This document shows, in pieces, positions 12,903 through 48,084 of a DNA stretch of 64,000 nucleotides (position 1 is the first letter of the stretch; every line of letters begins with the position of its first letter). The notes beneath the pieces were generated by a model. That model ran no database searches. It was given only the letters and a program-made list of their open reading frames with translations, and was not told the DNA's origin. The stretch is taken from NCBI GenBank assembly GCA_015143295.1, contig CM026554.1:28285531-28349530 (forward strand), in the 5' to 3' direction. The DNA is from Tetracentron sinense (Eukaryota; Streptophyta; Magnoliopsida; Trochodendrales; Trochodendraceae). The position numbers and the translations under genes are program-made.

Positions 12903-13031
12903 TTACGATGTTTCGTAAACAACCTACAAACAATTATAGAAAGCCTACGAACAATCATAGGAAGTCTACGAACGTTCGTAGAGTCCCAGAAACTGGGTAA
13001 ACTCACTGGAAAACCTACGATCGATCGTAGG
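12903..13031. repeat. Palindrome array in solo LTR U3, about 21-bp pitch
   Basis: The units are TTACGATGTTTCGTAA (12903), CCTACAAACAATTATAGA (12923), CCTACGAACAATCATAGG (12944), TCTACGAACGTTCGTAGA (12965), a different short palindrome CCCAGAAACTGGG (about 12986) and CCTACGATCGATCGTAGG (13014). Starts are 20-21 bp apart except for the last step. The array lies upstream of the LTR TATA box. Confidence 0.85.
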
Positions 13032-13484
13032 TGCGCGAATTAGTTTTTTTGTGTGAGATTTTTTAGGGTTTTAACCTTAGTAACCCAAACCGTTTGTTTA
13101 CCCACCCGCTCCCACTCTCAAACCTCGCTCTCATGGTTTGAGAGCGAATTTGTATAGAGAGCGCGGTTTCCATTTTCGGAAATTGCGATTTTCATATTTG
13201 TAAAGCTTGATGAGTGCGCAAAGCTCGATCTCCACGCTGGTCTCACCATTTTTTCAATACTGTAACTCATAAAACGAAGATAAACAGTGAAATCGAAGCT
13301 TTGGTAGAAATTTACATTTTTATCCTTCTTATGGGTCAATGCTTACCGAAAGACATAAAAAGTCTTTCAAAAAAAATAAACTACATCAATGCATGATGTG
13401 TTGTGACTTGTGTCAGTGTACATGAGTCATTTTCAACTCTTTTCAACTCCTTTTACATTATTTGTTTTCAACTTTTTTTAGCCT

Positions 13485-13645
13485 ACGTGGATGATAATTC
13501 ATTGCCAATTGAACTCTCCATGAGTTCAATCATACTCTGAGGCCAACACAATGTGTCTTTTAATCTTTACTAAGTGTGATTAAGATTCACTAATTTTTAA
13601 GGTTCAATAATATAACATTGAATTTTTTAAAAAATATTAAAATAT
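13485..13645. repeat. Half foldback element within the solo LTR
   Basis: AATTGAACTCTCCATGAGTT, then the AACACAATGTGTCTTTTAAT and GTGATTAAGATTCACTAA modules match the left arm of the family at 40-360. The right arm is absent. It interrupts the LTR between its palindrome array and TATA box. Confidence 0.5.
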
Positions 13646-14519
13646 TATTTATATATATACCGGCGCTCTAGAGGCGCTCTCGATCATATCCTAAATTAAA
13701 ATTTGACGCTCTCCCGCTCCTCCTCCCGCTCCCCGCTTTGGTTACTTAGGTTTTAACCCCTTTGCCTATAAATTAGGAGATTATTTTGGGGGTTTTGGGT
13801 TAACCTAAAACTAAAGGAGTTTTTAGAAGAAAAGGGAAAAGATTTTGGGGATTCCAAAGAGGGGTTTTGTTAGAGATCAAGTGGAGATCAAATTCAAGCT
13901 TCCACAAGCTTGGATCTTCATCCTCGAGTGTGGATATCCATTTTCAAGCTCAAGCTCGTGCTCAATCATCCTTCTAAGCTAGAATTTAATCTTTGCAAGG
14001 TAAGTACTACTACTACCTAGCTTTACTATGATACAAATAGTAAATGTGGGATTTTGAGTAACTAGATTATGATCAAATGAGTAACTAGGGGTTTATGATT
14101 TGAGGGTTTTTCAATAAAAGGATGAATATAGTATACTAGTATGTGAGTGTTATTATCTTTCAATAAAACCATGATTCTAAGTATGTTGTGATGAAATAGG
14201 CTTAATGGCCAAGAATGGTGTGATGAAATGCTATGAATGAGAATATCCCATGTTTTTGGAAATTGTTCAAGTATACTATGATAATAATATGTTTTGTAAG
14301 ACCATGTATGAAATGTTAAAAGTTCCTAAGTATATAGCGATAATCACAAGCACTCCACACACTCTATGTTTTGCATGACCACGGTTTTCTCATAAGTACT
14401 AGGAATTGAAACAAATAAATGAAATTCATAAGGAAATACAAGTACGATCTCATATGCATGATTACGGTGAATTGTCAAAGGATGTTGATAGCCCAGGATA
14501 GTTCGGGTGCTAACATCTT

Positions 14520-14835
14520 GCTCATAAGCTAAGATATAAGAAATTCTCATAAGTTGAAGGATCAAACAAGGAGGTTGGTAGCCCAGGGTTTTGCGGGCAC
14601 TAACCTCTTGCTCATAAGAAATTCTCATAAGTTGGTGGTTTGTCAAGGAGGTTAGTAGCCCAAGTTTAAGGGTACTAACCTCTTACTCACAAGAAATTCT
14701 CATAAGTTTGGTGGATTATCAAAGAGATTGGTAGTCTAGGTTTTAAGGATACTAATCTCTTGCTCACAAGAATCTCGAAACGAAATCTCATAAGAAATCT
14801 CACAAGAACTCATAAGCTCATAAGAACTCATAAGA
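14520..14835 (+). repeat. CTCATAAG-rich array in the transcribed part of the LTR
   Basis: The word CTCATAAG, or one-base variants (CTCACAAG), recurs about a dozen times, partly inside an imperfect repeat of about 80 bp that also contains GGTTGGTAGCCCAGG. The same word fills the corresponding part of the LTR at 37306-39143 (there as CTTATGAG on the plus strand). Confidence 0.75.
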
Positions 14836-15168
14836 ACTATAGAAGGTGTTTTGTTTTCCACGAGAGATAAGATTTTACGAATGATTCTCTATGTTGGTTT
14901 TAACATGATTTATGAACTGTATTCTTTTAAGTACTTGTATGTGATATTATTGTTGTTTTAACATTGTTAGCTAGTAGTTTGTATACGCTGAGTATTCCAT
15001 GCTCAGTCGTACATTTTATGTCGGCAGGTACACGTGTTCCCTTTAACATCTGTGTTCTGAGTCCTTAGATAGAGGAAGACTATGGTGAGGATGAGCCATA
15101 TGTGGAGCCAGTAGTAGAGCCTCAGGTGGAGGCAAGGGACTTAGACTATTGGCCCTATCAGGGTGACT

Positions 15169-15173
<5 letters not shown>

Positions 15174-15200
<27 letters not shown>
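15174..15200. repeat. GA microsatellite
   Basis: About 13-14 GA repeats in the U5 part of the solo LTR. Confidence 0.9.
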
Positions 15201-15203
<3 letters not shown>

Positions 15204-18237: not shown

Positions 18238-19132
18238 TGTAACGGATAAAATTCGTAAAATCAACTTAGCGTTGGAGAACGAGCTCGTTTTTGTTGTTTT
18301 GTTCACGAAAGTGACACGTGGACACGAGGTGGGGCCACGTGCTTAAAATAGAGGGGTCATACGTTGTCTGATGCACAACGTTCACGTTGTGCGCATTACG
18401 ACGTCTTTGTTCTCTTGTAGAACAACGTTTCCGTTGTGGCTTGACAACGTGCTCGTTGTCTGAAGCACAACGTAACCGTTGTACTCTTGACAACGTTTTT
18501 GTTGTATATGAACAACGAGCCCGTTGTCTCACCGACAACGATATCCTGGCTGTGTTTTAAGACATCAACACCGTAACCGAGCTCGAGTCAACAACGAGAC
18601 CGACTCGTAAGAGGAAGTGATCGGGAGGCGATCCATAATTCTGACAGGTGTGCCGAAAATACTGTTGCGTGCCGAAAGCACTGTCTTGGCATTTAATGCT
18701 GGTCACTTCTGCGTACTGTCCGATCCCGTTCGATTGGACGCTTAGGAGGCTCTCACGTGTGGTGCAACCGGCGGCAGATATGACTGACATATTTGGTAAT
18801 GAGTGCAAAACACGTGGTATGGACACCTATGGCCATCCATGGTCATCGATGGCCATACCAACCTTACCCTATAAATACCCCGTGATTTTTTAGTGCTTAA
18901 GAGTTAGTTGTTCATCACCCGTATTCGAGAGTATACGTGTCCAGTGCTTCTCAGAGCCTTGCGTAATTTTCAGTGCCTCTTTCAGTGTACTGCTCATCAT
19001 CTTCTACATCTACTGACTTTATCATCGGAGTACAGGTCAGGGTGTCACACCCTCCACTCCAACCTTCTACCGGTAAACCAGAGCGTGGGAGCAGCAGCTG
19101 ACGCGTGTCCTTTCCGGTATTTTCCCCTCACA
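18238..19132 (+). repeat. 5' LTR of the Tat element
   Basis: U3 begins TGTAACGGATAAAATTCG. An array of palindromes lies at 18375-18540. The TATA box TATAAATA is at 18870-18877, giving a transcription start near 18900. The LTR ends TTTTCCCCTCACA. Confidence 0.93.
18375..18540. repeat. Phased palindrome array ACAACG-N4-CGTTGT in Tat U3
   Basis: Units start at 18375 (loop TTCA), 18422 (TTTC), 18444 (TGCT), 18467 (TAAC), 18490 (TTTT, right arm TGTTGT) and 18512 (AGCC), with a half-site at 18535. A decayed unit ACGACGTCTTTGTTCT sits at 18398, on phase. Starts are 22-24 bp apart. The arms are constant while the four-base loops and 6-7-bp spacers vary. The 3' LTR has the same array, with one arm changed in the fifth unit. 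Confidence 0.92.
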
Positions 19133-19136
19133 AAAT

Positions 19137-19154
19137 TGGCGCCGTCTGTGGGAA
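19137..19154 (+). promoter_or_regulatory. Primer-binding site of the Tat element
   Basis: TGGCGCCGTCTGTGGGAA starts four bases after the LTR. TGGCGCCGT matches the 3' end expected for plant tRNA-Asp; the remainder matches less well. The same sequence follows the LTR of the second Tat relative at 48088. Confidence 0.75.
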
Positions 19155-19188
19155 ATAATAAACGAACCCCCCTTTGCTCTTTGTGATC

Positions 19189-22100
19189 ATGGCTGATCAG
19201 TCATCAGTGTTCGGGCGTGAGGATCAAACCCCTCAGGCTACTCCTTTTGTACCTTCTGTCGTGCACATCCCTGTGGTCAGTCCTACGTCTGGGCACCCAG
19301 AGAGGACCGTGCCTCCTCCTGTTGAGCTTTCTGTTTCTGATCGCATTTTGGCGATGCTGCAAATGCAGCAGTCTGCTCTGGATCAGATCACCAGGCAGCA
19401 GCAGTTGATGCAGGCAAGGCTGGAGGCGTTCGAGCATAGCAGGCTCGAGGTGGATGAGGTGCCATTGCAGAGGTCTTCCCTGAGACGTCAGTTTGACTTC
19501 TCTTCTTCTCCTTCTGCACCGGAGAACTGTGAAGCCAGGTTTGTGCTTCATCCTACTGAAGGGGATGTAAGGCAGCCTCAGGTTCGGGTAGAGCAGAGTA
19601 TTCCTTCAGATCGTGTAGATTTGCGAGAAGGGGCAGGGCGAGAAGACTTGAGAGGGGGTACTGGAGGTGCAGACGCCCAGAAGACTTGGGTGACTGTCAA
19701 GAAGGTGGAAGCTTTGATCGGTGCTCGTGTTAAGAGCATGAAGGGAGGGATTTCTGACCACTTTGCTCAGTCAGCAAATGATAACGTTGAGAACTCTCCT
19801 TTCACGGACGTCATCAATCAGTCATATACTTCTTCGAAGTTTATAACTCCGATCTTCCCCATGTACACTGGAAGGACGGATCCAGAGGAGCATTTGTTTG
19901 ATTTCAAACATGCGATGGCTGTTCGCAATCCAGATGATGACCTGTATTGCAAGGCTTTCCCCAACAGCCTGTCTGGGGCAGTGTCGAAGTGGTTTCGGAA
20001 CTTGCCTCCTGGTTCCATCAGTAATTTCTCAGAGCTCAGGTCAGCTTTCATTGACCGTTTCATCATCAATAAGAAGAAGAAAGCAGGTGCAGATACTCTC
20101 TTCTCGTTGAGGATGAAGCCGGCTGAATCCTTGACGGACTTCATTTCGCGTTTCACTGATGAAGTCCACAACATCGATAAAGTCGATGAAGCGAGCTGTA
20201 TCGCTGCTTTCAAGAATGATATCCCCAGGCATTCCGAGCTCTATAAGTCCTTGGCTCTTGACTATCCTGTCAAGATGGACGAGTTGCTGGTTCGTGCCAC
20301 CAAGTACGGAAGGTACGAGGAGGACATATCCGTTGTGCCGGTGCCGAAGCCCAGGACGAGAGTGGTGGATGTCGTGGAGAGGACACGCCAATCATCGAAG
20401 AGGAAGGAGAAGAAGCAGAGGTACGAGTCTTCATCATCTGAGGACTCGCCACCAAGGAAGCAGAAGGAGAGAGTAGTTTATGTGACTTAGCGGGATCAGT
20501 CGGATCGGCGTCCGCTGGAAAGAAATTTTAATCAGCAACAGAGTAGGGCGGAGAGACGTCCTAATGATCAACAGCAGGTGAGGCAGCAGTATCAGCCACG
20601 CCAGGTGCAGCCTCAGGTACAGCACGAGAGAGGCGTGCAGCCTAGTGAGCGGCGATCTTTTGCAGATCGAGCACAGCGCATCAATTTCACAGTCAGCCCG
20701 GCGACCATCATGAGGTCGATGGAGGATCAGCCGTACTTCGAGTGGCCGGCTAGGGCTGTGCAGGATGTTACATCGGGACCATGGGTGCATGAGTATTGTC
20801 ATTATCACAAGTGTCGTGGTCATCTCACCAACCGATGTCGTATTCTGATGGAGTACTTGGAGAGACTGGTTCAGGAAGGGTACTTGGGAGAGTATCTTGC
20901 TTCTGGCAACAGCGGCATGGAGCAAGCCAGGGAGCCGGTATCCCAGGCTCGTGGAGAAGAACCTGCCAGCAATCCAAGTACCAGTGGAGGAGCTCCCCGG
21001 GGCACGATCAATGTCATTTGTCGCGTGCAAGCGCCGGAAGCAGATGTGGAGAGGAACTTCAGGGCGAAGGCCAGGAAGCTGTCTCACGATGCTGCAGTGT
21101 GTCAGGTGCAAGTGCCTACCAGAAGCGTTGAGCAGACACTTACTTTCACCGATCGTGATCTGGCAGCAGTGATCCGACCTCACTATGATGCTCTTGTTCT
21201 CACCATGAGAATAGGAGATTTCGACATCAGGAGAGTGCTCGTGGATTCCGGGAGTGGAGCAGACATCTTGTATCTTCATGCTTTCACCCAGATGAAGCTG
21301 GATCCTTCCGTTCTCATCCCTGCTCAGACTCCGCTGTTCGGATTTGATGGCAGCTCGATGAAGCCTGTAGGCGACGTTGTCTTACCCGTTGTGGCTGGAC
21401 CCGTTGTCCTTCAGACCAGGTTCTCCGTTCTGGACGCGCCATCGCCGTACAATGCCATCTTGGGTCGTTAGTGGACCCATGAGATGAAGGCTGTCCCGTC
21501 CTCGTACTATCAGGTGTTGAAATATCCAACCCAGGATGGGCCTCAAGAGATCAAGGGTGATCAGTTGGCATCGCAGAAGTGCGATTTTTCTGCTTCCGTT
21601 GTGCCTTCATAGTAGTTACAGGTCGTTCCCGTTGTGGAAGAGAGCTCGGAAACATCCTTGTGCAGACCTTCCGTTGAGCCCACGAAAGCTGTTAATTTGG
21701 GAACGGAAGAAGAGCCAAAGGTGTTGCAGGTCGGGATGAGCTTGACAGCGAAGGAAGAGCTCGAGTTGCTGAGTTTCCTTAGGCAGAACCTTGATGTCTT
21801 TGCATGGTCTCACAAAGACATGACTGGCATCGATCCGAGTGTTATCTGTCATCACCTCAATGTTGATCCTGCTATCCCTCCAGTGAAGCAAAAACCTCGG
21901 AGGCTTGCTCCAGCTTATCATGATGCAGTGAACGAGGAGATCGACAAGCTGATTCAGTTTGGGTTCATTCAGGAGGTGCAGTACCCTGATTGGATAGCCA
22001 ATGTTGTGGCTGTGCCTAAGAAGAACGGGAAGATGAGAGTTTGTATTGACTTCACTGGTGTCAATAAGGCCTGCCCTAAGGACTTTTTTCCCATGCCAAG

Positions 22101-24942
22101 GATAAACAGGCTCATCAACGCCACTGCTGGCCACGAGATGTTATCCTTCATAGATGGTTATTCAGGCTATAACCAGATCCTCCTGGCGGAAGCAGATCGA
22201 GAGAAGACCACCTTCATAACGGAGCGGGGCTTGTTCTGTTATCGAGTGATGCCTTTTGGCTTGAAGAATGCAGGTGCCACCTATCAACGTCTTATGAATC
22301 TCATGTTTGGGTCACTTCTTGGCAAGACGGTTGAAGTGTACATCGATGATATCATTGTGAAGAGTCGAGTACGAGGTACTCTGGTGACGGACCTTGCTGA
22401 GCCTTTCTCTGTTCTGCGATCTTTCAATCTAAAGATCAACCCAGAGAAGTGCACCTTCGGAGTTACCTCAGGGAAATTTTTGGGTTATCTTGTGACTCAG
22501 AGAGGGATTGAGGCTAATCCAGCTCAGATCCGTGCTTTGCTGGACATGCCAGAGCCTAAGTCGAAGAAGGAGATCCAGAAGCTGACAGGCCGGATCGCTG
22601 CACTCAATCGGTTCATCTCCAAGTCATCCGATCGTTGCAAACCTCTATTCGAGTTGCTGAGAAAGGACTCCATTTTTGCGTGGACTCCAGAGTGTTCTCG
22701 AGCTTTCCTTGCCTTGAAGGAATATTTAGGCTCAGCTCCTATCCTTTCGGTGCCTGAGCCAGGTGAAATCTTATATCTTTATCTGTCTGTTTCAGAGCAA
22801 GCCCTTGGGTCCGTCCTGGTCAGGAGTTGTGATTGCGTGGAGAAACCTGTCTATTTCATCAGTAAAACCTTTCTCAAGGCGGAGTGCAATTATAGCAAGC
22901 TCGAGAAGGTATGTCTAGCTCTTGTCTTTTTTACGGAAAAGCTTCGTCCTTACTTTCATGCTCATTCTATCGTTGTCATCACAACGTATCCCTTGAAAGT
23001 CGTGCTGGGACGACCCGAGCTGGCGGGGAGGATGTCGAAGTGGGCTGTAGCTCTGAGTGAGTTCGATATTCAGTATCGGGCTAGGAGTTCAGAAAAGGGG
23101 CAAGCAATGACAGGTTTTCTTTCTGATTTCCCTGTGGAGGAGGAAGCAGAGGAGGTGGTTGTTGATCTTCGGGAGCTTCCTATTGAAGTTGACAACGGAG
23201 ATGTCGTTGTGGATGGAGCCAAGTCAGCAGAGTGGAATGGTTGGTTATTGTACGTGGACGGATCTTCTAATTCTAGTGGTTCAGGACTGGGCGTTGTGCT
23301 TATAAGTCCGGAGAACATCAAAGTGCAGAAGATGTCGTGCCTTGGGTTCACTGCCTCCAACAACGAAGCTGAGTACGAAGCCTTACTGCTTGGGCTGGAG
23401 AGTGCTCGAGAGCTGCAGATCTCCATGTTGAGAGTGTTTTGTGATTCACAGCTCGTGGTGAATCAGGTGAATGGTGTTTATGACTGCAAAGACGACCGGA
23501 TGAAGTAGTATGCTACTGTCGTTCGTTCGCATTATGAAGCATTTACCGTTGTGGAGATCGGGCACACCCGGAGAGATGAGAACAGGCATGCTGATGCTTT
23601 GGCGTATCTAGCTTCCATGGTGCAGGCTAACGAGCCTAAGGCTATTCTGATGGAGTTCCAAGAGTATCCTTCAATAACTCTTCAGGTACAGTGAGAAGTG
23701 TTTTTTGTCAATCCTGTTCCGAGCTGGATGACAGGGCTGGTGGCTTATCTGAAGGATGGAATTCTTCCTATCAGTGTGAAGGAGTCGAGGCACATTCAGT
23801 TCAAGACATCTCGTTATGCCTTGGTGCAAGGAGAGTTGTTCAGGAAATCTTTTGGTGGGCCTTTGTTGAAGTGTGTTCATCCTGCAGACGTGGAGAGAAT
23901 ACTTGCTGAGTTGCATGAAGGTATATGTGGTATTCATTCAGGCGGAAGAACCATTGCCCACCGAGCTCTGGGGCAAGGTTACTTCTGGCCTTACATGCAG
24001 GCTGATGCTCAAAAGTATGTGAAGAAGTGCAGCCAGTGCCAGCGGTTTGCTCGTTTGATTCATGCTCCGGCTCAAGAGCTCAGCACTGTGTCTCAGCCTT
24101 GGCCATTTGCACGTTGGGGACTTGATATTGTTGGACCTTTCCCTAGGGCTCCAGGGAATCTGATCTTTCTTCTAGTGGCAACTGATTACTTCTCTCGTTG
24201 GATTGAAGTTGTTCATCTTGCCCGTATCAGAGAACAAGAGGTGAAGAAGTTCTTGTGGAAACATATCATCTGCAGATTTGGCATACCGCAGTCCATCATT
24301 ACTGACAACGGGAAGCAGTTTTCAGGACGTTTGATTGCCGACTTTTGCAGCGAGCTGAAGATCAAGCATGTTTTCTCTTCCCCATATTATCCTCAGGGAA
24401 ATGGATTGGCCGAGGCAGCCAATAAGAACATTCTCAATGCCTTGAAGAGAAGACTGGAAGATTCGAAAGGGAAGTGGACCGCCGAGCTGCACAACGTTTT
24501 GTGGGGGTACAGAACAACTCCGAGGAGTCCTACCAATGAAACTCCTTTCTCTCTAGCGTATGGTATGGAAGCTGTCATTCCTACTGAGATCAGTTTGCCT
24601 ACAGTGCGTTCTTGGCACAACAAGAAGAAGGATGGAGAGAAAGATCAGAACACAGAGCTTATGGCTATTCATCTTGATTTGCTAGAAGAAAAGCGAGAAG
24701 ATGCCAGCATTCAGATGAGGAGGTATCAACAACGATTGAGGAAAGCCTACAACAAGAAAGTACAACGGAGAGTGCTGCAGGTCGGTGATCTCGTTCTCCG
24801 AAGAGTGTTCCAGAACACGAGAGAGCTTAACAGTGGCAAGTTGGGACCTAACTGGGAAGGACCTTATATCGTAGAGTGGTTGGGAAGTCCTGGAGTCTGT
24901 TACTTGAAAGACTTACAAGGTAACCTCATCTCAAAATCCTGA
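19189..24942 (+). pseudogene. Tat gag-pol polyprotein, one frame with in-frame stops
   Basis: A single reading frame of about 1,900 codons starts at the ATG at 19189 (a more likely start than the ATG at 19174). Capsid-type gag lies at about 19840-20330, a Cys/His motif (CHYHKCRGHLTNRC) at about 20800, aspartic protease with VDSGSGADIL at about 21240, reverse transcriptase with YIDDIIVKS at about 22340, a first RNase H to about 23110, then an archaeal-type RNase H (YVDGSSNSSGSG, NNEAEYEALL) at about 23250-23620. Integrase has an HHCC region (HSGGRT, CSQCQ) at 23930-24045 and catalytic Asp (LDIVGPF), Asp (TDNGKQF) and Glu (GLAEAANK). Stops are TAG at 20488, 21469, 21610, 21613 and 23506, and TGA at 23692 and at the 24940 end. 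There is no frameshift. The catalytic residues remain but the product cannot be made as one chain without suppression. Confidence 0.9.
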
Positions 24943-25349
24943 AACATTATGAATTTGAGGCAATTCTTTCAATAGAATCTATGATATGCTACTACATGCA
25001 TCGTTGTGCTTACAAGCTTTCAGTGATTTTACATGATCATAGTGCTCATATTTCAACATGTGACTTGCAATATTATGCGCCTGCTCATAGTCTACACTGT
25101 ACTCTGTCTGGTTCATCAGTGTAATATTGTGAATGTTTTGCAAGTAATTCAAATAAAATTTTGACTGAACAACCTACTCATAACGAACACGAGTGGCTTA
25201 TATAAGGATGTCATCTGAGCAAATCTAGTGGCTTATCCTAATGACATCCTCTGAGCATGTGCTTCGAAACTGAGTTACATTGTGTTCATCATATGAATTT
25301 TATTTGTCAGATTGCATTCACAGTGAACTACGCGAATGATGTATCTGGA

Positions 25350-25516
25350 GTAGTGCTTGCTCGTAGTGCTTTGCTCGTAGTGCTTTGCCCGTAGTGCTTT
25401 GCTCGTAGTGCTTGCTCGTAGTGCTTTGCTCGTAGTGTTCTACTCGTAGTGCTCTATTCGTAGTGCTTTGATCGTAGTGCTCTACTCGCAGTGTTTTGTT
25501 CGTAGTGCTTTGATCG
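25350..25516 (+). repeat. 14-bp minisatellite in the Tat 3' region
   Basis: About 12 copies of CTCGTAGTGCTTTG with small variants (CCCGTAGTGC, CTCTACTCGTAG). It lies between pol and the convergent antisense gene. Hypervariable tandem repeats at this location are known in Tat-lineage elements. Confidence 0.9.
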
Positions 25517-25795
25517 AAATTATTTGTGTAACACTTATAATTTTCACTCTGATACATACATTCACATAGTAAAGTGTCATATTCACATCAATGCTGTGAA
25601 CCGTGAAAATTTTATGTTGTGTTGTTTGTGCATACGTTGTGCTACGCTACGAGGTGAAAAGAAATGCAAACATAAGAGAAAGGAGTGATCCATTCACACA
25701 GAAGGCCCATTTCTGGGTAATTACAGCAACAGAGGGAAAGAAAAGAGTTTACATCATTCAAAAAGAGAAACAGAAATATGAAGAGGAGCAGCAGA

Positions 25796-28313
25796 TCAGA
25801 CGAGCTCAAGATCAGCATCTGTCGTCGTTGTAGCAGGGGCAGAAGTAGAGGCTTCAGCAGTTGGGGTTTCCACTGGAGTAGCTTCATCGGCAGCAGTAGG
25901 AGCTTTAGGAGCAGTTGGCTCGAAGTACGGCTCAGCTGAGAGAGGTGCAGGACCTTCAAGAGAATGAGGTTGCTCGATGCCTTGGACCTCGGCCTCGTCG
26001 TCTAGCTCGATCAAGTCTTTGCTCTGAAGCTCGGAGACCGTGATGGCGTCCTCTTCGTTGTCTTCTTTCAGACGACCTTGTTGGCGGAGCGATTCGAGTA
26101 GCTCTTTCTCGGTCTCTGCCCGATCCTCATCCAAGAGCGTGTCCAGCTGGGACTGATAGTGCTGTTGTAGTCTCAGGGTCACGGTCCTCTCGATGGTCTC
26201 TTGAGCTTTCTTGGCCTCCTCGAGCTCCTCCGCCAGTGCTGTCCTGGCTGCCTCAGTTTCCTCCAACTGTCTGCCCAAAGCTTGGGAGACGTGCTCCAGT
26301 TCGCTGATGCGTAGAACAGCGTTCTCAACCTCCTGTTTGGCCTTCTTCTCGGCCTCCTTTGCTGATCGTGTCTCAGCCTCAGCTTTTTCTTGTGCCTTGG
26401 TGGCAGTTTTCAGCTTCCCCTCAACGCGAGCAGCGTCAGCTTTGGCTTGAGACAGATCAAAGTCTGCCTTGAGTCTCTCTTCGACGAGAGTCTTCTCCAG
26501 CGTCTCAGTCCTGCCCTTCCAGTAGTTGATCCCGTCTCGGAGGTGATTGTAGCTATATTGGCTACGATCACAGAGTTCCTGCACGAGCACGTTCATCTGC
26601 AAGGAAGTGTCCGGGCGTTAGCACAATGAGGAGTAAAATTTCAGCAGTAGAGTAAGAAGAAGAGGAAGTGAGAAACTTACTGACGCCACAGACTGGCAGG
26701 CGGCGTAGGACAGATCGGTCAGATGGAGTTTGCCGACGTCAGCGATGTCCTGGGGCAACCTCATTGCATGAGTCAGAGCTCGGGCGGTCTTCTCCGAACT
26801 CTGCACCGAGTCGTTCACAGTCGGTATCCCATACCGAGAGAAGTCGGGCGACCAGTCCGGAACGCTCGTCGGTAGCATACGAGCTGGAAGACTCGTTGTG
26901 CCAGCTTCCGTTGCGGCCAGGGCAATCACGGTGGAACTCGTGCTGGCTGGGGCAGTTGCAGCTCGAGAAGGGGTAGGTGCCGAGCTGGCTTCGGGCACCG
27001 CCGTTGTCACCTCTGCTCCTGGACTTGTTGCAGGAACAGCAGAGGTGGAGGGGGGAGCAGCAATGGCTGCGTTCTCTTTCTCTAGGCGTTTTTCCGCCTT
27101 CGCTTTCTTTCTGGCCTCGTACTCGGCCTGGGTCGGCATCTTTCTTTTCGGGTCAGCAGTCGCTGTACCCTTGGAAGGAGGGTTCCTCTTCTTCAACGGT
27201 GGTGGCGGTGGTGGAAGCTGAACTGCAGGGCGAGCAGACCTTGGCTTCCTGCTCAGTGGAGGTGGATCCATGCCAGCCATGTCTTCTTCTGCTTCGGCTA
27301 GATTAGTTGCTGGTGAAGGTGCAAAAGTTGAAGCACCTAGTTGCTGTTATTGTGGTTGTTGTTGTCGTCGTTGAGCAGTTGCAGTAGGAGTGCTGAAGGC
27401 GACCCATGTGTCAGGCTCCAGTGGTTTCCACCGGATGTATTCCCCACCTCGAGCACGTTGGATATTGGTAAGGAGGCCTTCTTCTTCTGGGGCCAACTTC
27501 TTATACGGGAACTTCTTTGCGTCAACTGCACACAGAAAAAAGCAAAATGAGTACAACGAGAGTCAGCAGGACTTAAGCATACAACGTGCAACGAGAACAG
27601 AGTCAGAACAGTTATGCACAACGGACAACGGACAACGGACAACGGACAACGGACAACGGACAACGGACAACGGACGACCGTAGTAGTATACCTGCCTCCG
27701 CTCGGAAGACATTGGGGGCCCTGGAATTTTCTGCCTTCCAACCGTCAGAGACGACGAAAGGAATGGCTTTTCACCCTCTTTCTCTATCAAGTATGCCTGA
27801 GACGAGCTCTGGATGTCGAGGTTTCTTGTTCCATGAGTAGTAGGAGAACAAACCATCGTCAGTGCTTCGGCATTTGACAGCATGGCAGAAGTGGAATAGA
27901 TGCCTAGCTTCTATTGGGTAACCGTCCTTGGTGAATTTGATCATCATGGACATATATTTGTGGAAGCTGGGATGCATTTGTCCCGGTGCGAGTTGCAGGG
28001 TGGACAGAACGTCGTCCAGGACGGGATGGAGAGGAAAGCGGAGGCCAGCCTCGAGCTGGGAGAGGTAGACGACGGTACAAGCAGAACGCTTATCAATGAT
28101 AGCGTCATCCCGTTTGAAATGGAGATAGACGTTGGAAGGGAAGTCGAAACGTTCCCTGTAGTGGTTCAGATGTGCCAACTGATGTTGGCGCAGGACTGAG
28201 GATTGTTCGATGTAGGCACCATGAGGTGCGCTACCTGTGCAACTGGCCTCATCTTCAGTAGGGCCTCTAACTTCCTCTAACCTAGCGGGTTCTACGGGAA
28301 TGATGGCAGCCAT
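25796..28313 (-). pseudogene. Tat antisense gene (aORF), three exons, two nonsense codons
   Basis: Encoded opposite to gag-pol. Exons are 28313-27692, 27525-26681 and 26596-25796, joined by GTATAC...TGCAG and GTAAGT...TGCAG introns in matching phase (756 codons with the stop). Exon 1 contains a segment like the putative gypsy-type transposon domain (PF04195), with GLRFPLHPVLDDVLSTLQL and APGQMHPSFHKYMSMM. Exon 2 is proline-rich and basic (LPPPPPPLKKR, EARKKAKAEKRLEKE). Exon 3 is a long Glu/Ala/Lys coiled coil with an acidic, Pro/Thr-rich tail. A TGA at 27771-27773 and a TAA at 27347-27349 are each one transition from Trp or Gln. Antisense genes here are documented for Tat elements; function is unknown. 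Comparison with the copy at 50190-52434 supports the exon borders. Confidence 0.82.
27617..27675. repeat. (ACAACGG)n minisatellite in aORF intron 1
   Basis: Eight consecutive ACAACGG units. The unit contains the half-site of the LTR palindromes (ACAACG). The corresponding intron of the second Tat relative has three dispersed ACAACG words. Confidence 0.93.
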
Positions 28314-28591
28314 AGTAGTTGGAAGAAACAGGGAAAATGAACGAAGAACAGAGAACAGAACACAGAGAGTACACAGAGCGGATTCACTCCAAAAACTAGA
28401 GAAGAGAGAGAGGGAGAAACAGTATGAAATATTAAGGAAAAAGGTGAAGAGCGTATCGAACAGAAGGCGACTGAGAGAGATTGTTGAGAGCTTGAGGAAG
28501 ATGAACTTGCGGTTGAGAAAAAATTCGACAGAGTAACAGTGCTTGAAGGAACAGGGTGAAAGAGAAGGAGTATTCGGTGGAGATTTTATAA

Positions 28592-28602
28592 GCATCTCAG
28601 AT
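28592..28602 (-). promoter_or_regulatory. Candidate TATA box of the antisense gene
   Basis: On the minus strand TTATAAAATC lies about 280 bp upstream of the antisense ATG at 28313, inside the internal region and outside the 3' LTR. It would give the antisense gene its own promoter. No transcript evidence is available. Confidence 0.45.
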
Positions 28603-28928
28603 TTGTGAAACTACACCACTACCCTTCATCAGAGCCGTACACCTGTGTCAAAGGGAAGAAGAGCAGTGGCAAGATCGTCTTTTCACCAAAAGAGAGTAAC
28701 CGTCAGAGTTATTAAAGCGTTTTGAAATTCGAATCAGCGATGATGACAGCCTGTCCGCATTAAAGAGACGTGATGGTTCGCACGCGCAACCAGCTGGCGT
28801 GAACGGTCGATCTTCCCAGCGAGCGTTTAAAGCACGCAGCGTTACATCTTCTGGGGCAGGCCAGGTATGATCTTTTTGTTCGTTTATGACGCTTCGAACT
28901 ACGTTCCAAGCATCATAAAAGGGCAAAT

Positions 28929-29823
28929 TGTAACGGATAAAATTCGTAAAATCAACTTAGCGTTGGAGAACGAGCTCGTTTTTGTTGTTTTGTTCACGAA
29001 AGTGACACGTGGACACGAGGTGGGGCCACGTGCTTAAAATGGAGGGGTCACACGTTGTCTGATGCACAACGTTCACGTTGTGCGCATTACGACGTCTTTG
29101 TTCTCTTGTAGAACAACGTTTCCGTTGTGGCTTGACAACGTGCTCGTTGTCTGAAGCACAACGTAACCGTTGTACTCTTGACAACGTTTTTGTCGTATAT
29201 GAACAACGAGCCCGTTGTCTCACCGACAACGATATCCTGGCTGTGTTTTAAGACATCAACACCGTAACCGAGCTCGAGTCAACAACAAGACCGACTCGTA
29301 AGAGGAAGTGATCGGGAGGCGATCCATAATTCTGACAGGCGTGCCGAAAACATTGTTGCGTGCCGAAAGCACTGTCTTGGCATTTAATGCTGGTCACTTC
29401 TGCGTACTGTCCGATCCCGTCCGATTGGACGCTTAGGAGGCTCTCACGTGTGGTGCAACCGGCGGCAGATATGACTGACATATTTGGCAATGAGTGCAAA
29501 ACACGTGGTATGGACACCTATGGCCATCCATGGTCATCGATGGCCATACCAACCTTACCCTATAAATACCCCGTGATTTTTTAGTGCTTAAGAGTTAGTT
29601 GTTCATCACCCGTATTCGAGAGTATACGTGTCCAGTGCTTCTCAGAGCCTTGCGTAATTTTCAGTGCCTCATTCAGTGTACTGCTCATCATCTTCTACAT
29701 CTACTGACTTTATCATCGGAGTACAGGTCAGGGTGTCACACCCTCCACTCCAACCTTCTACCGGTAAACCAGAGCGTGGGAGCAGCAGCTGACGCGTATC
29801 CTTTCCGGTATTTTCCCCTCACA
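28929..29823 (+). repeat. 3' LTR of the Tat element
   Basis: Same length as the 5' LTR and about 98.8% identical by eye. It is preceded by the purine-rich AAAAGGGCAAAT, the likely polypurine tract, and followed by the target duplication ATTTC. Confidence 0.93.
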
Positions 29824-34180: not shown

Positions 34181-35032
34181 CAGTGTTTTAAAAGGTGTGA
34201 GAGGCTTACGCCTCAAGATTTGCCTCGAGGCAAGGCTCAAGGAAAACGCTTTGAGGATTAACCTTGAGGCTTAAATCTCTTGAGGCTAACACCTCAAATT
34301 TTGACTCACTTTACATCTGAGGTATGCGCCTCATACAATAATCAAAAATAGGGCTCTAACCACATAACTGATACTTGAACATTAAATATTTTATTAAGAA
34401 GTTTGCCTCATGCATTAATCAAAATAAGTTCTAGTCACATTACTAAGTCTTAAACATTAAGGTGTGTGTCTCGTAAATTCTTTTATCGATAAATTAAATT
34501 TATTTTTTCCTTTTTTTATTTTGTTATTAGTCTAAATTTAACACTTAATTTATTATGTCTAACCTATTTAAGCTTTAAAATTCTTTTTGAGTATATTCCA
34601 CTCTAATTTTCATATTTTCATAGTAGACATTGCAAAGATTTGGAGTCATTGTCTAACATATGTAGTTGGTGGCTACTTTGTAATTGTTTGTTGGAATCCA
34701 AAATCAACCACATGATTGAATGTTATCCGTCTTTTAATATGTATATGAACAAAAAAGTAAATTTAAATTTTCACTTCTCTTGCCTCTCTTAATTTTTTTA
34801 ATGGATCAATAATTTATATAGTATTACATATGCATATGCGTACACACATGCGTGTGTATATATATATATACATATATTACCTTTAATTGATTTTTTTGAA
34901 TCTTTTTACAATTTTCTTATTTATTTATTAAAATGAAGTAGCATAAGACTTTCTTGTGAGGCTTAAGCCTCACGCCTCATGCATCTTGAGGTCTCAACAC
35001 CACACCCCACACCTTCGCATTTTAAAACACTG
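34181..35032. mobile_element. Non-autonomous hAT-like element in a cathepsin intron
   Basis: The termini CAGTGTTTTAAAAGGTG and GCATTTTAAAACACTG are inverse. Subterminal GAGGC/GCCTC words are dense at both ends. Flanking octamers GTCCGTGC and GTCTGTAT differ at three places, all transitions, so an 8-bp target duplication has probably decayed. It lies between exons 6 and 7 of the cathepsin pseudogene. No transposase. Confidence 0.65.
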
Positions 35033-35689
35033 GTCTGTATTTCTGACCAGCAGTTCTATGAGTTCTATTTAAGGATTATTGCATTGTCACATCATCCTCA
35101 TATTCATGGTTAATGTGTAAAGCTCAAGTGCTCAAATCATTTTCATCTGGCAGTGTGACCCTTACTTTGATGACACTGGTTGTTCTCACCCTGGTTGTGA
35201 ACCTGTATATCCCACCCCAACGTGTGAAAGAAGTGCAAAGACAAGAACCAGCTCTGGCAGGAGTCAAAGCACTTCAGCGTCAATGTGTATAGAGTCAGTT
35301 CTGATCCTTACATTATAATGGCAGAAGTATATAAGAATGGTCCAGTCGAGGTCACCTTTACTGTTTATGAGGTAAAAAAAAAAGTTCCTTTATGTACTTC
35401 TTGTTGTGAATATGTTGAACTGTTCCTTTCTGTACTTTTTCTAAATGTCTGAGCATCCCTAGTGGGAGTTTGGCTACTCATTCAATAAATGTGTCTGTTT
35501 CGTTTTTTTGTATTTTTAGATTTAAGTTTTGCTCGTCACTATTTTTTTTCTTTGGTTTATGTTTTTTTAAAATTTCCTCTTCTATGGTTTTTTTTCCTCT
35601 CCCAGTAGATTGTGTCGATAATGTTGTTGCATGTAAAATGCTTATCAAAAGTTTCGATAATGGTATTTTTGGATATTTTTTTCTTGTTG

Positions 35690-36121
35690 TGTTAGAAGTG
35701 CGTTCGATTGAATCAATATCGATGAACCTAGAAAAGAGGGTTGAGGGTTGGAACGAACGTATAACAAGAATTCTTGGAATTCCTTGGGGATTCTTAATTG
35801 GCGCTGAGCTAACCATAGCGCAAAGTCGTATCTCTTTGGTTAATAAGATCCAAAAGGTTTATCGATCCCATGGGGTGCAAATCCATAATAGGCATATAGA
35901 AATTATTGTACGTCAAATAACATCAAAAGTTTTGGTTTCAGAAGATGGAATGTCTAATGTTTTTTCACCCGGAGAACTAATTGGATTGTTGCGAGCGGAA
36001 CGAACGGGACGCGCTTTGGAAGAAGCAATCTGTTACCGAGCCGTCTTATTGGGAATAACGAGGGCATCTCTAAATACTCAAAGTTTCATATCCGAGGCGA
36101 GTTTTCAGGAAACTGCTCGAG
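35690..36121 (+). pseudogene. rpoC2: Plastid rpoC2 fragment inserted in the nucleus (NUPT)
   Basis: An uninterrupted frame encodes about 144 residues of the plastid RNA polymerase beta'' subunit, including [55 protein letters not shown] and [14 protein letters not shown]. These are very conserved plastid sequences. The match stops abruptly after GAAACTGCTCGAGT. It lies in the cathepsin intron between exons 7 and 8, flanked by T-rich DNA of no clear origin. As a small internal piece it is not functional. Confidence 0.92.
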
Positions 36122-36679
36122 TGTTTTTTTCTTGACGGTTATAGTTTCTTTTCCATTTTGCAGGATTTTGCTCATTATAAGTCAGGAGTGTACAGATATA
36201 TTACAGGTGATATCATGGGAGGCCATGCTGTGAAGCTAATTGGGTGGGGGACTACTGATGATGGGGACGATTATTGGGTATGTATCTGATTCTAGTTATG
36301 AGTATTCCAAGTCCATAACTATCACCTCTTATCTAAAGGATCTTGATTATGCAATTGTGGCCTTTGTTGCAGCTTCTTGCAAACCAGTGGAATTGAAGCT
36401 GGGGTGATGTATGTATCTATCAACTTCTTATCCATCATTAATTATTAAAGTGCGCTATGTTAAACCCTCACTTTGGATGCTGGCAGGACGGTTACTTCAT
36501 GATCAGGAGAGGATCAAATGAATGTGGAATTGAAGAGGATGTGATTGTTGGGTTGCCTTCATCAAAGAACATGATAAGGAAGTATGCTGGTGTGGATACA
36601 GGGCGCCATGTCTCAGTTTGACTCTAAATCATTATAAGTGGTAGTAACTTGAAAGAATACATGTGGGGCATCTGTGGTC

Positions 36680-37305: not shown

Positions 37306-39143
37306 ATCGCGACCCAAAATTCCACCTAGGAGTTAGGAGAGACTTTGCGCATGACTATCATATCATATCATACCATCCTGTATAAAATACACAAGGCAGA
37401 ATTATAGCGGAAGCATAAACTGAAAATTTCTTCTATACATACCATATCCCAAGTTTATACAAAAGACAACATAACAAAAGTAAAGTGGACACACCCACTT
37501 TAGCAAAATGAATATACATATCACTCTCTCACATCACTCATAGTAACCAGGATGAGGCCACCTATCAAGGGCCCTCTCCACAGAAGCAAGATCCACCATA
37601 GGCTCCTCCTCACTGTACTCCTCCTTGACCCATGGTCCTGGAGCACATATGTCAAACAAACCCACCGAAGATAACAGTGTGGCTGAGCATGAAATACCCA
37701 ACATATACAAACTATTAGCTAACAATGTTATAAAGTAATAACATGCTTACAGTTCTTTGAAATCGTAGAGTGTAGAGCTGAAACCATACTTCGAATCATA
37801 TCGTAAATAGTGCATAGTTTTTCAAAACTTGCCTTAGGAGCTTTCTTTGAAATTTGAAATCGTATGAGTACTTATGAGAAACCAACACATAGCTTATGAG
37901 TTCTTATGAGAATCAAGGGTCTTATGAGATCTTTGCTTATGAGAATCATTGTATGAGTCTCTTATGAGATCGTTGCATATGAGACTTATGAGCTTTTGAA
38001 CTTCCTTATGAGCTTATAAACTTATGAGTAAGACGATTGCACCCTTTAGCGACTTATGAGCCGGGTATGTAAATATCCTTCATCGAAGGTACATAGAATA
38101 GGGCTACCGTCATCCTTGACCAATCCTCCATTTGGCATTATCAACTTACGAGATTCACTTTTGAGCCGGATATGACATATCCTTGACTAACCCAACGTTT
38201 GACTTTATCAATGCTTATGAGCCTTTTGAGCTTATGAGTTATTCTTATGAGCATGTGAACTTATGAACTTTCCGGATATCCGTACTTTTGAGAAAACATT
38301 GATCATGCGAGACATAAGTGCACAGAGTGCTTGTGAGCATCATGAAAGACTTAGAAAGCTTGTAAACATCCAAACATATTCATGGAATATCATTCATAGT
38401 GATAACATAGCGAGAACATGGGCTACTTAGCCTATTTCATCAAAACCATGTCATTTCATCATTCTTTCACCAAAGAATTCATAACAAGGGTAGATAGTAG
38501 AGTGTATCTACCTTTCAAGATTAATTCCCTTTGATCTAAGCACTTGAGGATGGTTTGAGAAGTGAAATCGGACTTCTCCTTTGCCAAAAACACAAACCAA
38601 GAACACCTTATCAAAAGACCCTAGCCTTCCCCTCTTTCTTCTCTTCTTTCTCTCTCAAACTTTCTCTAAAAAACTTATAGGCAAAGGGTTGCCAAAACCC
38701 TTAAACACCCTTCCAAATATCTTGGAAGATCGGCTAGGCAAAAAGAAGCACAATCGGTCGACCAGAGGTATATTCAGTCGACTGGATGCCTTTCGGTCGA
38801 CCGGATGTTGCACTCAGTCGACCGGTCCTTGAGACCCCCTTGACTAAAAAACCCATAGAGTTTTGGGAGGGCCTTGATTGACCGGATGTTGCACTCGGTT
38901 GACTGACCTTGGTTCAGTTGACCGGATCGGGTGTTTGGTCGACCGATTGGCCTTGTTTTGGCCTATTTTGGCTTGTTGTTTACACTTTAAAACTTAGAAT
39001 TGTTTCTACCCTCTTCTTAACACATTTGAACACACTAAAGGGTCCTTAGGACCCTAACACACACATGCTAACACATTATAGGGAGGATCTCATTGCACTA
39101 GTACTATTCATAGTGCCATGCAATTAAGTTCTGAGATTCTACA
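37306..39143 (-). repeat. 3' LTR of the minus-strand chromovirus
   Basis: It starts TGTAGAATCTCAG after the purine tract and ends near GGGTCGCGA. The TATA-like CCTATAAGTTT is at about 38671-38681. Downstream of it (lower coordinates) CTCATAAG words are abundant; upstream lies a GTCGAC palindrome array. Confidence 0.78.
38755..38945. repeat. Palindrome array CGGTCGACCG in LTR U3, about 20-bp pitch
   Basis: GTCGAC cores or decayed forms (GTTGAC, ATTGAC) start at 38757, 38777, 38796, 38817, 38877, 38898, 38917 and 38938. The steps are 20, 19, 21, 60 (three periods), 21, 19 and 21 bp. Flanks alternate CGG..CCG and CAG..CTG, keeping the palindrome. TGTTGCACTC is a recurring spacer. Confidence 0.88.
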
Positions 39144-44535: not shown

Positions 44536-44649
44536 TTTTAGTTGCGCCACTCGGTTTTGTTTTTCTCTTTAATGGAGAGAGAAAAGTCTTTAAATCCGAT
44601 TGCGCATGGGACAAGTCAAAAAGGGGAGGAGCCCAACCAAGACTTTGCA

Positions 44650-45560: not shown

Positions 45561-45602
45561 CTTTTTATTTTATGTTTTTAAACGGCTTCCGATTACTTTA
45601 GT

Positions 45603-45818
45603 GGATGCCCGAGGTGGCCCTGGGGCATCCACAAATCATGGGGCACTTTTGGGCGAGAAAGTCATTTAATTTTCTCCCCATGATTTGACTTTTCCCACTT
45701 GATACCTCCCACTTGATACTGAGATTTGGGGAGAAGTCAAAATCATGAGGAGAAAATGAAATGACTTCTCCCCTTAATTATCTCTAGGTGCCCCATGATT
45801 TGTGGATGCCCGAGACCA
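45603..45818. mobile_element. Related hairpin MITE
   Basis: GGCATCCACAAATCATGGGG at the left is inverse to CCCCATGATTTGTGGATGCC at the right, with shared GGGGAGAAGTCAAAATCATG words inside. It lies just downstream of the previous MITE and shares motifs with it. Confidence 0.7.
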
Positions 45819-45819
45819 G

Positions 45820-46554
45820 CAAGTATGGTATCTCGAGAGTCCCATTCCCACATGGCCACATGATTTTATATTTTGGTTGCAGAGAAGGTAAATGAGAGAG
45901 TAAAACCAACACATCTATTTTCTTATTTTTACTTAGCAATGTTATGTTTACTTTCCGGTTGTCTACTCTCCCCTATTTTTGTATTAGAAGACAAAATAGT
46001 ATGATATTTTTTATGGGATCCATCACTTTTGTTTTGTGTTTCTGTCCTCATTCTACTATTATAATCAGAGTATTAGTAGGTGGCATATTTTTTTTACTAT
46101 GACAAAAAATATCAAATATTATATTATCTTATTATTATTTAATATTTAATGAATAAATATTTAAGAAAAGTAAAGTCATTTAAAAACATTCAACTTCAAT
46201 CCCTTTTGATAGACCCATTAAGTCACTCTTTTTATTCTCTCTCCCTCTCACGTCTAACCCACTAATTTTTATAAAGAGTAAGGGGACTATTCCTCATTGT
46301 CCTCACAAAACCCTTCGATCTATGGTTGTTTTAATTTTTTTTCTTCTTCTAAAAACTAAGGTCAAGGGTTAGTAAATCTTTAATCATAATTAAAGAGTTT
46401 AAAAAAAAGACACGTGGCACAAAAGGAGGGGGGAGACTGTAAATCGTACTCGGATGGAGAAGGTGATTATTTTCTATTTAAAAAAAAAAAAAAACCAATG
46501 ATGAGCCTTTGTCAGGAGAGTCCCATTCATGCAGGATTTTATATTTGAAACCAA
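45820..46554. other. Intergenic, no supported gene
   Basis: AT-rich, stops in all frames. A GACACGTGGCAC word at about 46408 resembles the foldback family. Confidence 0.5.
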
Positions 46555-46870
46555 ATCCTCTAAGGTGATATCGCCCCTGAGGTCGCTATTGTCTCTTTGA
46601 CATCTCTTAATTGTGGTTAGATTCATTTACTCCTAAGGTTCACCTATCCATCCTTGGTTTGTAGAACAAAAAGTTAATTCATTTTTTAATATTAAAAAAT
46701 ATTTGAAAAGTTTTTTTAATATTAAAATATATTTTTTTAAAAACCAAAGATGGGTGGGTGAGGGTGAATCTTAACTATAGTTAAAAAGTGTCAAAAAGGA
46801 CACGCGCCGACCTCAAGGTGATGACCGGATTTGCCAAATCCGATTATCACCGTAGAGGTTTTGGTCTCTT
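46555..46870. repeat. Foldback MITE related to 373-742
   Basis: CAAATCCTCTAAGGTGATAT and GACATCTCTTAATTGTGG are returned as TAACTATAGTTAAAAAGTG and TGACCGGATTTGCCAAATCC at the right. The ends and AT-rich centre match the 373-742 element with many differences. Confidence 0.65.
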
Positions 46871-47183
46871 TATATTTTGGTTGCGTCCAGATAAAGGTCA
46901 AATAGAGAGAAAGCAAAGCTAAGCCTAGGGGTGTCAACGAGCTGAGCTGGTCACTGCTCGGGCTCGGCTTGATATATATATATATATTTAAATACATTGA
47001 TAAACACTAAATTCAATTTTAAAAAATTAAAAGGACATTTTTTTTTTTGGGATGTCATGTGACTCACGTGAAAGGTTGAGTTAAAACTTAAACGGAAATA
47101 ATTAAGTAAATGTCTACTAAATATATTTTACCAAAAAAAGGTATACTAAATATATAATATAAATTTAACTTTTAAAGGGTATT

Positions 47184-48084
47184 TGTAAGGGAAAAATCTC
47201 GTAAAATTGATTAAGTGTTGGAGAACAAGCTAGGTTTCGATGTTATGTGAACTAATGAGTGAAACATGGTGAAATAGAGAGTTTATCCGTTGTCTTGATG
47301 AAATTTTATACCCGGTGTTTCCTTAAATCAGTGTAAACGGTGTCTTATTGACAACGTCCTCGTTGTCCTCTTGACAACGTCCTCGTTTTCTTCAAGACAA
47401 CGTTTACGATGTGGTTACAACAACGTGCACGGTGTGATTACGACAACGTCCACGATTGTGTTTAGGATAACATGTTAACTGTCTATAAGGTAAACACATT
47501 CGTTCTCTATGGACAGCTGTCACTCACCTGTGCACATACACAATGAGTCCAAGCTTGAGTCAATAGCGAGACCGACTCACAGGAGGAAGTAATCAGCAGG
47601 CGATCCTTTGACTATGTCGGTAGGAGAAAAGCACTGTTTTGGCATTTAATGCTGGTCACTTCTTCAGACTGTCAAATCAAACCAGCTTAACTAGTAGTAG
47701 GCTCCGGCGTGTGACACGTATAGGCTCCAAATATGTTTGACATATTTGGTGATGATCATTCAGTGCATGGCATGTACATCTATGGGTATCTTGAACTAAC
47801 CCTATAAGTATCCCCAGAGAATCAGGGTTTGAGGTAGCTCAAGGGCATCTAAAATCCATCAAGAAACCATCAAAGAACCATTCAAATCTAGGCATCCAAA
47901 TATCCGAAATCAACCACACTTATCTGTCTTACTGTTCATCATTTTCTTCACATATTGACTTTATCATTGAAGCTTATTTCAGGGTGCACACCCGACTCCT
48001 TCTTTTCTTCTGCAAGTGAAGTATTTTGTTCTTTACCCTCTAACAGCTACAGACGCGTGGCGAGTCCGGGAATTTTCCCCTTCA
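47184..48084 (+). repeat. 5' LTR of the second Tat relative
   Basis: It begins TGTAAGGGAAAAATCTCG and ends TTTTCCCCTTCA. It shares scattered blocks with the first Tat LTR (GTTGGAGAAC, GAGACCGACTC, TGGCATTTAATGCTGGTCAC, CATATTTGGTGATG). The TATA box is CCTATAAGTA at about 47811-47820. Confidence 0.85.
47328..47460. repeat. 23-bp phased ACAACG array in the second Tat LTR
   Basis: ACAACG half-sites start at 47351, 47374, 47397, 47420 and 47443, exactly 23 bp apart. The right arms are CGTTGT, CGTTTT, CGATGT, CGGTGT and CGATTG, and the loops TCCT, TCCT, TTTA, TGCA and TCCA. A right-arm relic CGGTGT at 47338 is on phase for one more unit. Confidence 0.9.

What the first reader, a model, noticed from the sequence alone, without database searches (positions are those of the whole stretch)
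12903..47460. Four LTRs of different families all carry phased palindrome arrays upstream of the TATA box
Seen directly: both Tat LTRs have ACAACG-N4-CGTTGT units at 22-24 bp pitch (18375-18540; 47328-47460), the minus-strand chromovirus LTR has CGGTCGACCG units at 19-21 bp (38755-38945), and the solo LTR has CCTACGAWCGWTCGTAGG units at 20-21 bp (12903-13031). Within a family the arms are constant and the loops or spacers vary; between families the core is unrelated. Spacing is always near two DNA helical turns. Simple tandem duplication would preserve spacers as well as arms, so selection on dyad-symmetric protein sites on one face of the helix is a plausible reading. I know of no description of this shared architecture.
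Basis: partly seen in the sequence, partly recalled or inferred. Interest (0 to 1): 0.87.

Follow-up and report, generated by a model that had tools for sequence, protein, structure and literature searches.

The report
Phased palindrome arrays in gypsy LTRs
In this plant genome two groups of LTR retrotransposons carry rows of evenly spaced, symmetric DNA sites upstream of their promoters, most likely landing pads for paired DNA-binding proteins; similar rows were described in 2010 for another group, the Sireviruses, and here they appear in new groups with strict geometry.

Summary
The window has three Retand (Tat) LTR copies with ACAACG-N4-CGTTGT units, one chromovirus-type LTR with CGGTCGACCG-like units and one interrupted LTR with CCTACGAWCGWTCGTAGG units. 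Genome-wide the words far exceed their reversed controls: 19,785 v 190, 724 v 0, 1,295 v 0. In 20 Retand LTRs chosen without regard to the array, plus two from the window, arms agree within an LTR (0.77) while loops (0.31) and spacers (0.26) are near chance. The Retand loop is almost always 4 bases. Pitch is family-specific: 23 bp in Retand, 19-22 bp in the other groups, so 'one helical face' does not fit Retand.

Corrections: the four LTRs belong to two lineages, not four families, and the architecture is not undescribed: Sirevirus LTRs carry palindromic motif arrays upstream of TATA (PMC2829016), one of them exactly CGGTCGACCG. New as far as my searches reach: presence in two Ty3/gypsy lineages, fixed geometry, symmetric arms shared by neighbouring units but differing between arrays, and a conserved module inside the array. 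Best reading: U3 arrays of sites for dimeric DNA-binding factors. No binding or expression data were available.

The parts
18238..19132 (+). 5' LTR of a Retand-type element (18238-29823, target duplication ATTTC)
   Evidence: LTR pair 98.8% identical over 896 bases, 11 mismatches; gag, RT, RNase H, integrase domains inside
18375..18550 (+). Palindrome array of the 5' LTR: units at 18375, 18398 (3 mismatches), 18422, 18444, 18467, 18490, 18512, 18535 (half unit)
18870..18876 (+). TATA box of the Retand 5' LTR, about 340 bp downstream of the last full unit
28929..29823 (+). 3' LTR of the Retand element with the same array at 29066-29241
27771..28610 (-). Antisense ORF with a sub-threshold Transposase_28 (TRP28) match
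   Evidence: E 2.1e-05, 25.1 bits against a cut-off of 26.2
47338..47460 (+). Decayed palindrome array of a second Retand LTR (LTR about 47186-48083; TATA at 47803)
   Evidence: antisense TRP28-like ORF at 51788-52423, E 0.0022
38755..38945 (-). CGGTCGACCG-type array, 8 units in two blocks with a 60-bp step, in the 3' LTR (starts 39143) of a minus-strand Ty3/gypsy element
   Evidence: SH3_Tf2-1, RNase H and RVT_1 pieces upstream
38825..38874 (-). Interval between the two blocks, holding the decayed copy of the conserved gap module
38673..38679 (-). TATA box of the chromovirus-type LTR, about 75 bp downstream of the last unit
12902..13031 (+). CCTACGAWCGWTCGTAGG-type array, 5 units, steps 21,21,21,49
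12983..13013 (+). 31-bp block in the 49-bp step of the solo-type array
13080..13745 (.). Insertion separating the array from its TATA box (13767); TTA duplicated on both sides, GTAACC ends inverted

Best explanation
The arrays are enhancer-like platforms in U3. Each unit is a site for a symmetric (dimeric) sequence-specific DNA-binding protein. Five to nine sites at a family-specific pitch are bound side by side and set the activity of the LTR promoter downstream. In the chromovirus-type LTRs the row is broken by a 49- or 60-bp step that holds another conserved block, read as the site of a second factor. The proteins are probably host-encoded. When a lineage changes its factor, neighbouring units come to share the new symmetric arms. 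Shown here: like arms with unlike loops and spacers, fixed half-site gap, fixed pitch, position upstream of TATA, symmetric arm agreement between neighbours. Inferred: protein binding, dimer, host origin, activating role, cause of the core change.
For: Arms 0.77, loops 0.31, spacers 0.26 within 22 LTRs. Half-site gap 4: 19,785 sites, against 618 for gaps 0-3 together and 1,109 for gaps 5-12 together; reversed controls 190, 274, 648. Pitch 19-22 in 49 of 50 listed GGTCGACC pairs (16-26 allowed) and 47 of 50 listed CGATCGATCG pairs (16-30 allowed); 21 in 63 and 49 in 19 of 86 solo-family steps. Facing bases of neighbouring CGATCGATCG units complementary in 23 of 28 (shuffled mean 11.1) and 21 of 28 (10.6) at positions 1 and 2, 7 of 28 (6.6) at position 3. 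Gap module: 16 of 50 alignable columns above 1 bit in 25 loci, none of 11 in 52 ordinary spacers. TATA downstream in the five window LTRs.
Against: No binding, footprint or expression data. Arm conservation is weak in young Retand copies and not stronger than the upstream region in the solo family (that region was part of the query that chose the copies). Chaining on arm matches inflates the arm figure; unselected grid neighbours give 0.52, 0.33, 0.26. Arrays fold better than shuffles as RNA. L102 shows that arrays do grow by block duplication. A 23-bp pitch does not place sites on one helical face.
Confidence: 0.62

Rival explanations
1. RNA hairpins: the palindromes act in the transcript (U3 lies in the 3' end of the genomic RNA), through structure or as sources or targets of small RNAs, as reported for maize Sireviruses.
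For: RNA folding of five array pieces: z -3.1, -4.5, -1.4, -2.1, -1.9. Palindrome clusters of maize Sireviruses are small-RNA mapping hotspots according to passages in PMC5311732 and PMC10760457.
Against: Loop length is almost always 4, which a hairpin does not need. In sense orientation G-T mismatches (28) are not commoner than A-C (48) among 816 pair cells of 136 units, so G-U pairs are not spared. Several cores have no loop at all.
Confidence: 0.15
2. Self-encoded factor: in Retand the antisense TRP28 protein of the element binds the array in its own LTR.
For: Both Retand elements of the window have the array and an antisense TRP28-like ORF (E 2.1e-05; E 0.0022, both below Pfam's cut-off). 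TRP28 is reported as probably able to bind DNA (PMC11963269, passages).
Against: Would not cover the other lineage, where no such ORF was seen among the pieces scanned (9 window pieces, one more). No relative of the ORF was found in the protein database, so no structure was modelled.
Confidence: 0.12
3. Neutral tandem duplication followed by decay.
For: Arrays can grow by block duplication: L102 has its 21/49 pattern twice.
Against: Loops and spacers within an LTR are near chance and no more alike than between LTRs, while arms are alike in both comparisons. Facing arms of neighbours stay complementary for two bases beyond the core and then drop to chance.
Confidence: 0.05
4. CpG platform: the units matter as dense CG sites for methylation readers rather than for their sequence.
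For: Every core holds two or more CG pairs; CG columns in the solo family vary as methylated sites would (pi about 0.33 against 0.10 in other arm columns).
Against: The non-CG arm letters are the best kept (pi 0.00-0.06 at six of the ten non-CG arm positions), and symmetry and half-site gap are fixed.
Confidence: 0.06

Closest known systems
Sirevirus (Ty1/copia) LTR repeated motifs, Bousios et al. 2010, PMC2829016 (passages, section 9 whole, section 15 part 1 of 2)
   Same: Palindromic family-specific motif in many copies in the LTR, upstream of a TATA box; the Vitis element has exactly CGGTCGACCG, Tnd-1 has ACAATCGATTGT; no single binding factor identified.
   Different: There copia; here Ty3/gypsy. 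The paper calls the motif Sirevirus-specific against classic Ty1/copia elements. The sections I read give no fixed pitch, half-site gap, shared arm change or embedded module. Retand and solo-type cores lack the CGG-CCG signature.
Maize Sirevirus palindromes as small-RNA hotspots (Bousios et al. 2016, Genome Research; not held; known here from passages in PMC5311732 and PMC10760457)
   Different: Read there through secondary structure and small RNAs; no small-RNA data here, and the geometry here favours DNA sites.
Other LTR cis-regulatory arrays, for example Tnt1 box I, named as symmetric in PMC2829016
   Same: Repeated or symmetric sites upstream of an LTR promoter.
   Different: Other motifs and elements; [quoted passage not shown]
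Retand tandem repeats, PMC11963269 (passages)
   Same: Same lineage of element.
   Different: Those repeats lie between pol and the 3' LTR; the passages do not describe LTR palindromes.

Membership tests
Sirevirus repeated-motif arrays | Carried by a Ty1/copia Sirevirus | tested here: not met
   RVT_1, RT_RNaseH and SH3_Tf2-1 domains in the window elements and RVT_1/RVP_2 in L125; one RVT_2 ORF near array locus L037 is unresolved
Sirevirus repeated-motif arrays | Palindromic motif repeated in the LTR upstream of TATA | tested here: met
Sirevirus repeated-motif arrays | CGG-CCG core (12 of 13 elements in the paper) | tested here: inconclusive
   Met by the CGGTCGACCG group; not met by Retand and the solo type
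Sirevirus repeated-motif arrays | Units coincide with CpG islands; multiple polypurine tracts | not tested
   No island prediction or PPT count was made
Retand (Tat) lineage | Gypsy RT/integrase with long pol-3'LTR region and antisense TRP28 ORF | tested here: met
   Domains; about 4.0 kb between the integrase ORF and the 3' LTR; TRP28 match below the curated cut-off (25.1 v 26.2 bits)
Chromovirus lineage (window 38.7-46 kb, solo family) | Ty3/gypsy pol | tested here: met
Chromovirus lineage (window 38.7-46 kb, solo family) | Chromodomain at the integrase C-terminus | tested here: inconclusive
LTR enhancer array | Protein binding and effect on transcription | not testable with these tools
   No binding or expression data held

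The most novel reading that the evidence does not exclude
Separate lineages of plant LTR retrotransposons (Retand, chromovirus-type, and Sireviruses in print) have converged on one promoter design: a row of dyad sites at a fixed, family-specific pitch, in some with a slot for a second factor. The row changes its core coherently between sister families, recording repeated changes of, or races with, a set of dimeric host DNA-binding proteins.
Probability: 0.35. Interest if true: 0.8.

Novelty: new variant of a known kind. Interest (0 to 1): 0.55.

Why it matters
If right, abundant retrotransposons of a plant genome are controlled by a few unidentified dimeric factors whose sites number more than ten thousand each for two of the cores. 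Coherent core changes between sister families would be a natural record of how mobile elements change the protein they depend on, and the cores are short enough to fish for those proteins directly. It would also show that palindromic LTR arrays are not a Sirevirus peculiarity.

Tried and rejected
Rejected: neutral tandem duplication; one helical face as a general rule (Retand 23 bp). Tried without result: relatives of the antisense TRP28 ORF for a structure model (710 candidates, none at E 0.001); lineage of further CGG-type LTRs from ten neighbouring ORFs (SH3_Tf2-1 at L060, RVT_2 at L037, RVT_1 at L061; the other seven gave nothing or weak unrelated matches). The CTCTCTGGAAA box was chosen after seeing the data: at most 2 mismatches in 19 of 20 solo-family, 10 of 15 CGG-pattern, 16 of 30 chromovirus-related and 0 of 20 Retand loci, against 3, 15, 16 and 18 of 100 shuffled-box trials: clear in the solo family, suggestive in the next two. 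A search for GGTCGACC pairs at wider spacing did not complete. No other plant genome was held, so generality rests on the literature.

Rows dropped or limited: L102 left out of the alignments because its array is doubled. In one search, 40 printed strings out of 14,677 matches were reduced to 28 distinct up to strand; some of these are related copies, so they are not fully independent. One search used the first 50 listed spans each. One search left out L035, the window's own LTR. In one search the 25 gaps were turned to the strand that best fits CCATACAAA, which favours that part of the module; the spacers were not turned. Of the 15 CGG-pattern loci, 10 have a 58-64-bp step and 5 do not.
Full report
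What is there. The window lies in a genome of 1.16 Gb, a plant by its gene and element content (inference). A Retand-type element spans 18238-29823, with LTRs 98.8% identical over 896 bases and a 5-bp duplication ATTTC. Its 5' and 3' LTRs carry the ACAACG-N4-CGTTGT array; a second, diverged Retand LTR at about 47.2-48.1 kb carries a decayed one. A minus-strand Ty3/gypsy element has its 3' LTR starting at 39143 with eight CGGTCGACCG-like units spaced 20,19,21,60,21,19,21. The 'solo' LTR has five units spaced 21,21,21,49, and an insertion of 666 bp separates it from its TATA box. A relative of the solo LTR occurs as a pair 7.6 kb apart on one strand, and the DNA between (L125) encodes gypsy RT and protease. 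That RT is 69% identical over 54 residues to the RT piece of the minus-strand element and 36% over 327 residues to the Retand RT. Short BLAST matches join solo-type and CGG-type LTRs around the TATA box (for example E 1.8e-7). So the LTRs represent two lineages: Retand, and one that I call chromovirus-type, although no chromodomain was detected in the piece scanned.

More than chance. A like-arm scan found only the 18.4-, 29.1- and 12.9-kb arrays in the window and nothing in 20 shuffles. Genome counts exceed the reversed pattern about a hundredfold or more.

Arms against loops and spacers. I chose Retand LTRs by a 25-base word downstream of the array, fetched 20 from contig 1 and added two window LTRs. 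All 22 give chains of 5 to 9 units, allowing up to 5 of 12 arm mismatches, on a 23-bp step with some 22 and 24. Within an LTR arms agree at 0.77, loops at 0.31, spacers at 0.26; between LTRs 0.78, 0.35, 0.30. The chain is built on arm matches, which inflates the arm figure; unselected neighbours on the exact grid, some beyond the array, give 0.52, 0.33, 0.26. In 30 copies 96-100% identical to the window LTR, diversity is 0.021 in arms, 0.061 in loops, 0.030 in spacers and 0.038 elsewhere; p 0.08 for arms against loops plus spacers, 0.05 against the rest. In 19 solo-family LTRs non-CpG arm columns (0.10) are less variable than spacers (0.32), the stretch to TATA (0.28) and the region downstream (0.32), but not than the region upstream (0.125, p 0.19), which was part of the query that chose them, nor than the unit centre (p 0.18). 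CpG columns vary more than the others in every class, as expected of methylated elements.

Geometry. The Retand half-site gap is 4 in 19,785 sites, against 618 for gaps 0-3 together and 1,109 for gaps 5-12 together, controls 190, 274 and 648. In the array-blind set 79 of 84 facing half-site pairs with a gap of at most 12 have a gap of 4. In 45 chromovirus-related or CGG-pattern loci, 102 of 151 neighbour distances up to 100 bp are 19-22, 27 are 59-63 and 2 lie between 23 and 38. The order 21,19,21,60, with small variations, recurs in several loci that align at only about 67-82%, or over less than 150 bp in total; other loci lack it. Two turns fit these groups; Retand's 23 bp is 2.19 turns.

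Embedded module. In 25 loci with a 58-64-bp step, 16 of 50 alignable columns exceed 1 bit; 52 ordinary 11-bp spacers have none above 0.65. Fifteen of these loci were found by similarity to the window LTR, ten by the core pattern alone, and nine of those ten show the block by eye. The 49-bp step of the solo family holds a 31-bp block that shares a CTCTCTGGAAA-like box.

Core change. L056 and L063 have arrays centred on CGATCGATCG with arms TG/CA and GA/TC, on an LTR scaffold that by eye resembles the solo family's, which has TA/TA. In 28 distinct printed inter-unit strings (of 14,677 matches), the facing bases of neighbours are complementary in 23 and 21 cases at positions 1 and 2, and at chance from position 3. 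So neighbours share symmetric arms that differ between arrays. Within a family there is little covariation beyond column make-up, as expected of independent decay. L133 mixes GGGTCGACCC and CGGTCGACCG.

Mechanism. Fixed half-site gap, free loops and spacers, and no excess of G-T over A-C mismatches on the sense strand (28 against 48 of 816 cells) point to a dimeric protein on DNA rather than an RNA hairpin. RNA folding of five array pieces is stronger than the shuffle mean, clearly so in two, so a small-RNA effect like that reported for Sireviruses can coexist. Host origin is inferred from the recalled gene content of chromoviruses; for Retand a self-encoded TRP28 remains possible.

What is known. 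PMC2829016 (passages; section 9; part of section 15) describes palindromic repeated motifs in 13 Sireviruses, upstream of TATA, CGGTCGACCG among them, and reports no common binding factor. PMC10760457 (passages) says cis-regulatory regions of elements are often arrays of sometimes palindromic repeats. PMC11963269 on Retand (passages) treats tandem repeats between pol and the 3' LTR; its two uses of 'palindrom' fall in one cited title. PMC6911290 (passages) concerns palindromes at insertion sites. The listings (25 of 72 papers shown) showed, by title and start of abstract, no paper on such arrays in Retand or chromovirus LTRs; most subscription papers are not held, so this is a limited absence.

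Verdict. Real, far beyond chance and widespread in this genome, with arm conservation that fits selection; a Ty3/gypsy variant of the Sirevirus motif architecture, with fixed geometry and signs of coherent core change.

Noticed in passing
window 13080-13745: 666-bp insertion between the solo-type array and its TATA box, flanked by TTA on both sides and with inverted GTAACC ends; looks like a small PIF/Harbinger-type DNA element (label recalled).
   Followed up: partly
window 25796-28610, minus strand: Three long frames antisense to gag-pol in the Retand element; one has a weak Transposase_28 match, the other two have no Pfam match.
   Followed up: partly
window 18398-18413 and the same slot in most array-blind Retand LTRs: One slot of the Retand array departs from the motif by about 3 arm letters in most copies, which may be a conserved odd site rather than decay.
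   Followed up: no
L102 193-455: The solo-type array with its 49-bp step appears twice in a row, a block duplication.
   Followed up: no
window 57020-59252: Transpos_assoc and DUF4218 domains, probably a CACTA-type DNA transposon (label recalled).
   Followed up: no
window 53647-55891: Complex direct and inverted repeats of roughly 110 to 640 bp.
   Followed up: no
window 60795-61327 and 62890-63288: Direct repeats at steps of roughly 85 bp and multiples, and of 83 bp.
   Followed up: no
window 2519-3544, 33828-34274, 35419-36135: Host-like gene pieces: syntaxin with SNARE domain, papain-type protease, RNA polymerase Rpb1 domain 5.
   Followed up: no
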